The notes under the pieces are model-generated. The model did not search any database. It had not been told where the DNA came from and saw only the letters and a list, made by a program, of their open reading frames with translations. A DNA stretch of 33,980 bases, taken from positions 1 to 33,980 of the forward strand of contig JAJHQN010000006.1 in the NCBI GenBank assembly GCA_020833325.1. The letters are read 5' to 3'. This stretch comes from Desulfurococcaceae archaeon. Its GTDB lineage: Archaea > Thermoproteota > Thermoprotei_A > Sulfolobales > Acidilobaceae. How positions within the stretch are numbered: the first letter of the stretch is position 1; every line of letters starts with the position of its first letter. The position numbers and the translations under genes are program-made. Positions 10,781 to 22,443 of the stretch are shown here, piece after piece.

Positions 10781-10958
10781 TGTGCTCCCAGTACTTTAAA
10801 TCAACCACCTTGTATGAGAGGATTGAGAACCTACTAAGGCCCAGGCCTCTCAGCCCTAGACTGTGATGTCCTAAGTGGGAACCTTGAAAAGGTTATTTAC
10901 TTGCTTCCAAGCGGAATTGTTAAAAGAGGCCTTGAACTAGAGCCTCTTAGGATGCGGG

Positions 10959-13016
10959 TTACTGTGTGCTTGTGAATACTATTCTTACACCTGGTATTGA
11001 TATTGGTGTGAATGGAATTCCTCCTCCAGCGTAGAATTTACTGAACCACTCGTAGAAGTGTAGTCTTAGGCTGTGGGCGAAGGCTAGTATGCCTTCTAAG
11101 GCTATGACCATTAGGTTGCCTACTATGTAGACAAGGGCTCCTGCGATTAAACCTATGGGGCCCCAGCTTGCTAATAGATCGAATATGTAAGCGAAGGCGA
11201 ACATTATGCTGGAGTGGGCTAAAGCTAAGGCCATTATCCTAAGGAAGCTTGGTATGTTACCCATAGCCATTAATATAGACTCGTAAACCTCCATGAACGA
11301 TCTGGCCATACCGCTTAACGGGTTGTGTCCGTGGAGAGCTGAGATTAAAGGCTCACCTAGTAGAAGCCATGTTAGGGATACTGTGATCCCAGCTAGGACT
11401 ATTGTGGCTAGCATGTCACCCCCTCCTAGCTCGAGTAATGCTAACCCTAGGGTAGCTCCAGCTCTCTTAGCATCAAATAGTATGAGGAATGGTAGTGTTG
11501 CTGATGTGAAGAAGAGGAATTTAGGTATTTTAACTGCTACCATCTCCTCACGCTCCCCCGCAAGATAAGAGTTTACCACGCCAAGGAGTGTACCTAGTAT
11601 TAGCATGAAGGCTGCCATCCACAAGCTTATAGTAATAGCTCTGTAGAGCAGCTCTCCTACAAGCTCATTTAAACCATGTTCTACAGCGTATGTTGGTAGA
11701 GCTAGTGGGGGCACGTGGAGCCCTAGGAGACCCCATATCGATGATATGTGTAGGAACTCTGAAACCTTAGGTCCGAAGACCTCTCCGGCTAGGAGCCCTG
11801 TTACGATTGAGGTTGAACCTAGGATTGCTAGTATGAAAGCCCAATCCGGGCTCCTCCTCCTAAGGTATAGTAGTGCGAAGAGCACTAGAACGAGTCCTTG
11901 GCCTGCATCGGGGAACATTAGCCCGAACGCTATAGGGAATGTTATGGCTAGGAAGATTGTTGGGATTACCTCCTCCGGGTTCGGCTCCCCATACATCTGT
12001 ACTATTCTATGGAATGGTTGTAGGAACCATGGCAGGGATATCCTGGTAGGCACTCTAACCTCACCTCTCCTAATGCCAAGCCTGTATACTATGTATGCTC
12101 CCTCCGTCTCCTCCTCCACTATTGATATGAGCTTGTTGAAATCACTTACATCAACGTAGCCTCTAATGAACATAGATGTTTTACTCTCAAGACTATAGGC
12201 TAGGACCTTAAACGCTTCTCTGAAAGCGTACATGTATGTGTAGTAGTTGTGGAGCTCCTCCACCCTCTCCATAAGTTCGCCTCTAATCCTACTAGCCTCT
12301 CCAACTAGCTTGTCTAAGCCTTCCACCACAGTTTTATAAGCTTCTGAAGGCCTCCCCGGGAGCTCCCTAGGTATGACAATAATACTTAAACCCCTCTTCA
12401 CAAGAGATGGGACTACAAACCTCATAGACTCAGGCCTCCCCGCCACGCCTACCAAGACTGTCCTCTCGTCAACCCTCTCTACAACTGATACAAGGCCGTA
12501 CTTCTCCGTGAGCTCCACCACATATTCAACGATATCCCTAGGTGCTATCCCTAAAGCATACTGCATCCTAGCGGACTCCGCTAAAACCCTTATATCAACA
12601 TCTACATGCTTAACAGGTTCGAGGAGCTCCTTCAACCTCCTAAGCTCGGCAACAGTAGATTCTATTTCCGCTAACCTAGAAACCCTCACGTCGAAGAACC
12701 TATCCAACTCCCTATAACGTTCTAAGTACTCGTTAAAAGAGGAGACCCAGTCTGAAACCACAACCTCAACACCCTCCCTTAGAATAGGTTGCACTTTAAG
12801 GGCGGCATAGTAAGATTGTATCTTAGAGAACTTCTCGGAAGCCTGGGCGTAGGCAAGCTTAAACCTTGAGGTGGAAGCTCCGGGGAGCTCCTTCAAAGGC
12901 TCCTCGACATGGAATAAACTCTCGCTAACAAGCCTAGCAACAAGCCTATCGTAGGCAGATCTAGGTACAGCTATTAAAACCTCCTCAAGCCTCCTCGCCC
13001 TAAGCAAGCAGAACAC
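10959..13016 (-). CDS. atpI: A-type ATP synthase subunit I (a-subunit homologue)
   Basis: 685 aa; N-terminal coiled-coil cytosolic half, C-terminal multi-TM half with GLMFPDAGQGLVL and LRIMALALAHSSIMFAF...HSLRLHFYEWFSKFYAGGGIPFTPI. Confidence 0.92.
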   Translation of the reverse strand: MFCLLRARRLEEVLIAVPRSAYDRLVARLVSESLFHVEEPLKELPGASTSRFKLAYAQASEKFSKIQSYYAALKVQPILREGVEVVVSDWVSSFNEYLERYRELDRFFDVRVSRLAEIESTVAELRRLKELLEPVKHVDVDIRVLAESARMQYALGIAPRDIVEYVVELTEKYGLVSVVERVDERTVLVGVAGRPESMRFVVPSLVKRGLSIIVIPRELPGRPSEAYKTVVEGLDKLVGEASRIRGELMERVEELHNYYTYMYAFREAFKVLAYSLESKTSMFIRGYVDVSDFNKLISIVEEETEGAYIVYRLGIRRGEVRVPTRISLPWFLQPFHRIVQMYGEPNPEEVIPTIFLAITFPIAFGLMFPDAGQGLVLVLFALLYLRRRSPDWAFILAILGSTSIVTGLLAGEVFGPKVSEFLHISSIWGLLGLHVPPLALPTYAVEHGLNELVGELLYRAITISLWMAAFMLILGTLLGVVNSYLAGEREEMVAVKIPKFLFFTSATLPFLILFDAKRAGATLGLALLELGGGDMLATIVLAGITVSLTWLLLGEPLISALHGHNPLSGMARSFMEVYESILMAMGNIPSFLRIMALALAHSSIMFAFAYIFDLLASWGPIGLIAGALVYIVGNLMVIALEGILAFAHSLRLHFYEWFSKFYAGGGIPFTPISIPGVRIVFTSTQ

Positions 13017-14487: not shown

Positions 14488-14773
14488 GTTTACAACTGAA
14501 ACCCCCGCCTTTTCAAGGCAGAGATGGAAAGAGATTTGAGGCTTAAACTTATAGGGTTGAAGTGGAGAGGAGCCGGTGTGGGGAGGGGGTTCCGAGGGTC
14601 CCACCGGGGCTGCGGCCTCCCGGTCCTGAAATGCGATGCCCATAGGGATGGGGATTCTGAGAGGTGATGTAGGGGTTCCAAGCGGGGATCTGGCAAACTG
14701 CTCGGAGAAGCATTGGAGCCTCCCGGGGGGTGCGGGGAAACCTTGCCCTTTAAGGGCGGGGAGGGGGTTATAA
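14488..14773 (+). repeat. ~285-bp structured GC-rich repeat, copy A (IS605 right-end/omegaRNA-like)
   Basis: Begins GTTTACAACTG, contains CCGGTGTGGGGAGG..CCCACCGGGGCTGCGGCCTCCCGGTCCTGAAAT and ends GCGGGGAAACCTTGCCCTTTAAGGGCGGGGAGGGGGTTATAA. Collinear with copy B on the opposite strand. Confidence 0.8.
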
Positions 14774-14828
14774 AATTGTGTGAAGAGGGTATGTGGAGAC
14801 GTTCTCTTAGAGAGTCTGTTAGTACTAT

Positions 14829-21947: not shown

Positions 21948-22159
21948 AGAAGAAAGAGTTCAACGCAATCAGGTTACATCTTCTAATTTCGTGCTTTCAG
22001 CTGAGGCGCACACCTTACATCAACCGTATGGATCCCGCTTGAACTCTAACATTATGAAGCTCCCATCTATGGATGTACTTGAATAACATTACAGCATTCT
22101 CCAAGGCTTGGCGCACCTACGTAGCCTCATAACCGATACTATGTGGTATCAGCGGAGGC

Positions 22160-22443
22160 TTATGACCCCCTCCTAGCCCTTAAAAGGGCGAGGTTTCCCC
22201 GCATCCCTGGGAGGCTTTACGCCTCCCCCGAGCGGTTTGTCGGATCTCCGCTCGGAAGCCTGCACATCACCTCTAAGCATCCCCATCTCTTGGGGCATCA
22301 TCGTTTCAGGGCCGGGGGGCCTCGGCCCCGGTGGGGCCATCGGACCTCCTCCCCACACCGGGCTGCTTGACCGTAATTGTGTTAACCGAGCTTTAAGCTT
22401 CTTCATCTCCTCCTTAGAAAGGCGAAGCTTTCCAGTTGTAAAC
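22160..22443 (-). repeat. ~285-bp structured GC-rich repeat, copy B (IS605 right-end/omegaRNA-like)
   Basis: Reverse strand: GTTTACAACTG...CCGGTGTGGGGAGGAGGTCCGATGGCCCCACCGGGGCCGAGGCCCCCCGGCCCTGAAACGATGATGCCCCAAGAGATGGGG...CCGAGCGGAGATCCGACAAACCGCTCGG...GGGGAAACCTCGCCCTTTTAAGGGCTAGGAGGGGGTCATAA. Collinear with copy A. Confidence 0.8.

What the first reader, a model, noticed from the sequence alone, without database searches (positions are those of the whole stretch)
14488..14773. Two-copy ~285-bp structured element (14488-14773 + and 22160-22443 -) with covarying hairpins and no transposase nearby
Seen directly: both copies start with GTTTACAACTG and end with GGGGAAACCTYGCCCTTT(T)AAGGGCKRGGAGGGGGTYATAA. 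They are about equal in length and keep the same order of hairpins. Several paired positions differ compatibly. Hairpin 1 is GGGGC-TGCG-GCCTC (A) against GGGGC-CGAG-GCCCC (B), a G-U to G-C change. Hairpin 2 is CCCAT-AGGG-ATGGG (A) against CCCCA-AGAGA-TGGGG (B). Hairpin 3 is CCAAGCGG/CTGCTCGG (A) against CCGAGCGG/CCGCTCGG (B). The terminal stem is CCTTGCCC/GGGCGGGG (A) against CCTCGCCC/GGGCTAGG (B). This pattern suggests selection on RNA (or ssDNA) structure. Known context: IS200/IS605 right ends carry such GC-rich subterminal hairpins, and TnpB omegaRNA spans the tnpB 3' end plus right end with the guide immediately downstream. Inference: these are stand-alone omegaRNA-like/MITE elements, mobilised or used in trans, or a domesticated guide RNA.
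Basis: partly seen in the sequence, partly recalled or inferred. Interest (0 to 1): 0.78.

Follow-up and report, generated by a model that had tools for sequence, protein, structure and literature searches.

The report
Dispersed mobile TnpB-type guide-RNA genes
The two matching stretches belong to a family of about 50 small mobile DNA pieces in two related heat-loving archaea; each appears to carry a guide RNA for a TnpB-like protein (a relative of CRISPR nucleases) encoded elsewhere in the genome, so protein and guides have come apart.

Summary
Both copies are real, and belong to a structured family with 27 matches in this genome and 22 in one congener (Acidilobaceae MAG RSWP17), none in 58 other searched genomes. 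A 46-sequence alignment shows strong covariation. A third, decayed copy lies at 10806-10961.

Best explanation: transposase-less IS200/IS605-type elements (PATE/MITE-like), each carrying a complete omegaRNA-like guide RNA. The likely partner is a divergent TnpB-like protein found only in the same two genomes. One gene copy has the RNA directly downstream; a fragment in the window's genome does too; two gene copies have none nearby. Ends resemble the IS605 plan: TTTAC at the left end, a hairpin and GGGGGTCA at the right end, guide position after it. In 6 of 8 unoccupied sites the guide-position sequence follows (C/T)TAC or TATAC. Copy B is a clean insertion into another repeat.

Beyond the ordinary: guides greatly outnumber tnpB genes; many copies lost both end hairpins but kept a promoter-like box and a sharp 3' end; hairpin-less copies replaced 22-413 bp of host DNA; the partner has Asp for the RuvC-II catalytic Glu; no Y1 transposase was found.

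No expression or activity was tested. Guides hit nothing convincing elsewhere, which argues against regulatory domestication.

The parts
14489..14493 (+). TTTAC left of copy A: presumed target/TAM motif at the left-end junction
   Evidence: Same T(T)TAC/TTAC precedes the left end of most hairpin copies; Sulfolobus TnpB TAMs are TTTAA/TTTAT at the same place (PMC10640517)
14494..14770 (+). Copy A: transposase-less element with left-end hairpin, RNA body, right-end hairpin
   Evidence: 125 bits, E 4.7e-30
14533..14540 (+). Degenerate TATA-like box (GATTTGAG) upstream of the RNA body in copy A
   Evidence: Position by homology to GATTTAAGG/AATATAAGG at about -33 in other copies; weak in copy A itself, whose sequence does not match the scan pattern here
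14570..14770 (+). omegaRNA-like body of copy A (covariance-model match) ending GGGGGTTA
   Evidence: covariation
14741..14761 (+). Right-end terminal hairpin CCTTGCCC-TTTAA-GGGCGGGG
   Evidence: Same hairpin at right ends of the genome's classical tnpB elements
14771..14790 (+). Guide position of copy A (host flank; TAAAATTGTGTGAAGAGGGT), length assumed
   Evidence: Position by analogy with TnpB omegaRNA; no convincing second match in the genome
22438..22442 (-). TTTAC left of copy B
22163..22437 (-). Copy B: transposase-less element, clean insertion into another repeat
   Evidence: 147 bits, E 1.6e-35; six copies of the uninterrupted repeat in G002
22391..22398 (-). TATA-like box GCTTAAAG of copy B
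   Evidence: -32 from the RNA body
22191..22364 (-). omegaRNA-like body of copy B (covariance-model match; the right-end hairpin follows it)
22143..22162 (-). Guide position of copy B (TAAGCCTCCGCTGATACCAC), length assumed
   Evidence: Continues the interrupted repeat seen uninterrupted in G002
10806..10961 (+). Third, decayed copy of the RNA body
   Evidence: 25.1 bits

Best explanation
Copies A and B are transposase-less IS200/IS605-type mobile elements, each encoding a complete omegaRNA-like guide RNA. Shown by sequence: left end after TTTAC with a subterminal hairpin; a conserved, covarying RNA body; a right end with hairpin ending GGGGGTCA/TTA, after which host flanking sequence occupies the guide position. 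Inferred: the RNA is transcribed from its own archaeal promoter, bound in trans by the divergent TnpB-like protein encoded elsewhere in the genome, and directs that protein to the unoccupied version of its own insertion site, so that the element is kept or restored there; transposition was catalysed in trans by a TnpA not found in the assembly. The family has decoupled into few tnpB genes and many guide-RNA genes, and many copies have shed the end hairpins.
For: Dispersed family with different sites in two species. Covariation. Right-end hairpin shared with tnpB elements of the genome. The TnpB-like gene in G002:C13 is followed by the RNA about 114 nt after its stop; in G000:C38 a fragment of its homolog runs straight into the RNA plus right-end hairpin. 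Close relatives of the TnpB-like protein only in the two genomes with the RNA; it is a TnpB by Pfam (2.1e-7), by profile match to ISDra2 TnpB (E 0.007) and by Foldseek (top hits TnpB, Fanzor2, Cas12p, probability 1.00, E 1.5e-3 to 1.1e-2). In unoccupied homologous sites the guide-position sequence starts right after YTAC or TATAC in 6 of 8 cases. Copy B is a precise insertion. TATA-like boxes within 60 nt upstream of the body in 32 of 49 copies against 15 +/- 3 in shuffles (maximum 25) and 17 in a control window, clustered near -33.
Against: No TnpA in either genome, so the mobilising enzyme is unknown. Hairpin-less copies replaced 22-413 bp of host sequence, which plain IS605 insertion does not predict. 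RuvC-II catalytic Glu is Asp in all three cognate proteins, so nuclease-driven retention is uncertain. Two of three G002 tnpB-like genes have no adjacent RNA; pairing of RNA and protein rests on one locus, one fragment and co-occurrence. The AlphaFold model is weak (pLDDT 51). Two MAGs only; no expression data.
Confidence: 0.78

Rival explanations
1. Domesticated multi-guide regulator: the hairpin-less, promoter-bearing copies are host guide-RNA genes, and the TnpB-like protein with its altered RuvC site is an RNA-guided DNA binder (like TldR or Cas12m) that silences targets.
For: RuvC-II Glu replaced by Asp in all three proteins while 12 aligned TnpB relatives have Glu; solo tnpB-like genes without RNA; hairpin-less copies keep a promoter-like box and an exact 3' end.
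Against: Guides in the window's genome match only their own flanks; the best other matches are imperfect (23/25 at C6, a homologous flank; 20/21 at C106, outside the seed). Copies lie at different sites in the two species and several are decayed. RuvC-I and RuvC-III Asp are kept.
Confidence: 0.12
2. Plain PATE/MITE: the elements are only cis-acting end sequences left from deletion of tnpB; the body is a fossil omegaRNA with no present function.
For: PATEs of this origin are known in haloarchaea (PMC3119063); several copies are decayed.
Against: The body covaries across 46 copies and is better conserved than the ends, which many copies have lost; promoter-like boxes persist.
Confidence: 0.2
3. 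An unrelated structured non-coding RNA (or cis-regulatory element) that happens to be repeated.
For: No Rfam match; the body has no detectable similarity to a known RNA family in these tools.
Against: IS605-type ends, target motif, adjacency to and co-occurrence with a TnpB-like gene.
Confidence: 0.04

Closest known systems
PATEs (palindrome-associated transposable elements) of Haloquadratum walsbyi (PMC3119063)
   Same: Transposase-free, many copies, near-terminal palindromes shared with IS605-type transposons, short target sequence at one end
   Different: Those were described as fused ends of IS605 elements after core deletion; here a full covarying RNA body of about 180 nt is kept with a promoter-like box, and many copies lack the palindromes but keep the RNA
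TnpB-omegaRNA units of IS200/IS605 elements (ISDra2; S. islandicus SisTnpB1, PMC8612924, PMC10640517)
   Same: Right end forms the RNA 3' end, host flank is the guide, T-rich motif left of the element, TnpB fold with zinc ribbon
   Different: RNA lies downstream of or apart from the tnpB gene, guides far outnumber proteins, RuvC-II Glu is Asp, motif is YTAC rather than TTTAA/TTTAT
Stand-alone (trans) omegaRNAs reported for IscB in Ktedonobacter (from memory, not checked in a held paper)
   Same: Many guide loci apart from the nuclease gene
   Different: IscB/HNH lineage in a bacterium; here a TnpB-like protein in Thermoproteota archaea
TldR, TnpB-derived RNA-guided repressors (title and abstract seen only)
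   Same: TnpB-like protein with an altered RuvC site
   Different: Here D160 and D340 are kept, only Glu to Asp; no regulatory targets were found

Membership tests
IS200/IS605-type non-autonomous element (PATE) | Near-terminal hairpins at both ends | tested here: met
   Both in copies A and B; absent in many other copies
IS200/IS605-type non-autonomous element (PATE) | Insertion 3' of a short fixed target without duplication | tested here: met
   Copy B: clean insertion at TTA/TAAG of a repeat; YTAC or TATAC before the guide position in 6 of 8 unoccupied sites. Hairpin-less copies show replacement, not clean insertion; no empty site was obtained for copy A
IS200/IS605-type non-autonomous element (PATE) | Mobilising Y1 (HUH) TnpA in the genome | tested here: not met
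   PF01797 absent from G000 and G002; assemblies 94% and 87% complete. A non-autonomous element does not carry its own, so this bears on whether it is mobile now, not on its origin
TnpB omegaRNA | Conserved structured scaffold ending at the right end, guide from flanking DNA | tested here: met
TnpB omegaRNA | Encoded at the 3' end of a tnpB gene | tested here: inconclusive
   Met at G002:C13 (114 nt gap) and G000:C38 (fragment); not at C93, C134, nor for most RNA copies
TnpB omegaRNA | Bound by TnpB and guides cleavage | not testable with these tools
   Needs biochemistry
TnpB nuclease (partner protein) | RuvC D-E-D and zinc ribbon | tested here: inconclusive
   Zinc ribbon and two Asp present, Glu replaced by Asp258 in all three copies
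Rfam families | Score at gathering threshold | tested here: not met
   Only a tRNA in the window; no relevant weak match
TldR-type domesticated repressor | Guide matches a regulatory target elsewhere in the genome | tested here: not met
   No convincing off-site match for the guides of the 27 G000 copies; host promoters were not examined one by one

The most novel reading that the evidence does not exclude
A decoupled OMEGA system: a few solo TnpB-like proteins with an altered (D-D-D) RuvC site served in trans by 20-30 dispersed, independently transcribed guide-RNA genes, some of which insert by replacing the host segment between two YTAC-like sites.
Probability: 0.3. Interest if true: 0.85.

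Novelty: new variant of a known kind. Interest (0 to 1): 0.62.

Why it matters
TnpB and its guide are normally one locus. Here guides and protein appear to have separated and the guides multiplied, which is the step needed on the way from a transposon-bound nuclease to a many-guide system such as CRISPR-Cas12. It gives a natural test of trans use of omegaRNAs in archaea, and of whether an RNA-guided protein with an altered nuclease site can still maintain elements.

Tried and rejected
Rfam (gathering, and E-value on both copies): nothing relevant. Scan of viral contigs with the TnpB-like protein: nothing. Guide targets elsewhere in the genome: none convincing. Search for Y1 TnpA in 60 genomes: none in this genus. 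A first regular-expression search for ends in tnpB loci failed; reading the sequences gave the shared right end. AlphaFold model of the TnpB-like protein was poor outside the RuvC region. Copy A against G002:C157: the intergenic part could not be aligned, so no empty site was obtained for copy A. Empty-site checks for C26, C12 and C65 were not informative at the junction.

Full report
WHAT IS THERE. Copies A (14488-14773 +) and B (22160-22443 -) are real and match end to end. A DNA search of the window's own genome (1.45 Mb, 114 contigs, 94% complete) returns many further copies, and one congener (G002) has about as many. That congener is the MAG Acidilobaceae archaeon RSWP17. A covariance model (R1) finds 27 matches in G000, 22 in G002 and none in 58 other genomes of the genus, family and order. 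In the window it finds A, B and a decayed third copy at 10806-10961.

STRUCTURE. RNAalifold on 20 copies gives eight helices. Counting pairs on this sequence-only alignment gives 95.9% paired cells and a covariation score above all 500 shuffles and all slid versions. On 46 copies aligned to the model the signal is larger (32 of 42 pairs with double changes), with the caution that this alignment leans towards the structure. Two 5' modules exist: CCGGTGTGGG...CCCACCGG, and GCCTAGGGGGTT...CCCCCTAGGC. A long-range helix joins CCCCC(GG)CCCTG to the segment just before the right end. Rfam has no such family.

ENDS. One class, including A and B, has a left end TTTAC-AACTG with hairpin GCCTCGCCTTTCAAGGCGGGG and a right end with hairpin CCTCGCCCTTTAAGGGCGGGG before AGGGGGTCA. 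The other class has neither hairpin: it starts with a promoter-like stretch (for example TTTACGAGCGAAAAAGATTTAAGG) and ends GGGATGCGGGGAGGGGGTCAC; some copies have the left but not the right hairpin. The right-end hairpin also ends the classical tnpB elements of this genome. TATA-like boxes occur within 60 nt upstream of the body in 32 of 49 copies, clustered around -33, against 15 +/- 3 in shuffles and 17 in a control window.

THE PARTNER. In G002:C13 a 353-aa protein with a TnpB zinc-ribbon domain (PF07282, 2.1e-7) is followed, about 114 nt after its stop, by a copy of the RNA; another copy lies divergently upstream. In G000:C38 the 3' end of a homolog, cut by the contig edge, runs straight into a copy with the right-end hairpin. 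Close relatives of the protein occur only in G000 and G002 among 60 genomes, and only in RSWP17 in a scan of 84,980 species (that scan uses narrow patterns and may leave out the window's own genome). G002 has two more copies of the gene, C93 and C134, with no RNA nearby. The profile matches ISDra2 TnpB (E 0.007) and the model's best structural matches are TnpB, Fanzor2 and Cas12, though the model is weak outside the RuvC core. RuvC-I Asp160 and RuvC-III Asp340 are conserved; the RuvC-II position is Asp258 in all three copies and Glu in 12 aligned relatives. Whether it cuts is therefore open.

MOBILITY AND TARGET MOTIF. Apart from one old shared insertion (G000:C60 and G002:C12, both decayed), similarity between G000 and G002 copies stops at the element ends for nearly all pairs. 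Copy B sits inside another repeat that is uninterrupted in six G002 copies, a clean insertion at TTA/TAAG. For eight copies a homolog of the right flank without the element could be read: the flank begins directly after CCTAC, GTTAC, TCTAC, CTTAC, CCTAC or TATAC in six cases, after CTTAT for copy B and after CCAT for C110. The last base of the right end follows the target base, so the boundary probably lies just before it. This is the arrangement expected if the motif 5' of the target is also the motif at the left end, as for SisTnpB (TTTAA/TTTAT at the left end, PMC10640517).

WHAT DOES NOT FIT. Hairpin-less copies, and one with only the left hairpin, do not insert cleanly. G000:C24 lacks 323 bp of a gene intact in G002:C134; G002:C143 (left hairpin only) lacks 413 bp of a gene intact in G000:C98; G002:C44 about 113 bp; G000:C110 about 22 bp. 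No Y1 transposase was found in this genus. A similar puzzle, mobile repeats without a functional transposase in the genome, is described for some MITEs in Haloquadratum (PMC3119063).

HOW IT MOST LIKELY WORKS. Steps shown: a dispersed, structured element family with IS605-type ends, a target motif and a TnpB-like protein of matching distribution. Steps inferred: transcription from the element, binding in trans by the TnpB-like protein, targeting of the unoccupied site. Retention and gene-drive roles of TnpB in IS200/IS605 elements are described elsewhere (PMC11870625). Guides of the G000 copies have no convincing second match in their own genome, as expected for that role and against a regulatory role.

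VERDICT. The kind (transposase-less IS605-derived elements; TnpB guide RNA) is known. The decoupled, many-guide form in this archaeal lineage, the loss of end hairpins with retention of the RNA, the replacement-type junctions and the D-D-D RuvC site make it a new variant. I did not find this variant in the papers I could search, a limited library.

Noticed in passing
window 10806-10961: Decayed third copy of the RNA body beside a V-ATPase subunit I gene.
   Followed up: partly
L023 and L026 (G000:C21:15682-15711, C53:2192-2221): The classical tnpB elements of this genome also appear to have their own tnpB-less derivatives with the same right end and a different RNA body.
   Followed up: no
L034 (G030:C1:867415-867449): In another family of the order, a TTAC-AACTG left end and GGGCGGGGAGGAGGTCA right end flank a different body of about 260 nt: perhaps an independent case.
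   Followed up: no
L234-L239 (G002:C116, C63, C158 twice, C132, C10): Another repeat family (GGCTATTACAAGTTTGACAATAAATG...GACTTATAAGTC...) into a relative of which copy B inserted.
   Followed up: partly
L005 (G000:C74) and L032 (G002:C40): An inverted copy of the right end (GTGACCCCC..CGCATCCC) lies left of the RNA body.
   Followed up: no
L131 (G002:C78), L134 (G002:C22), L076 (G000:C90): Copies lie divergently next to genes of one paralogous family, with similar upstream flanks.
   Followed up: no
L078 (G000:C71:15038-15346): Two copies in head-to-head orientation.
   Followed up: no
L128 and L138 (G002:C143, C113): A duplicated segment carries the same element with the same guide in both copies.
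   Followed up: partly
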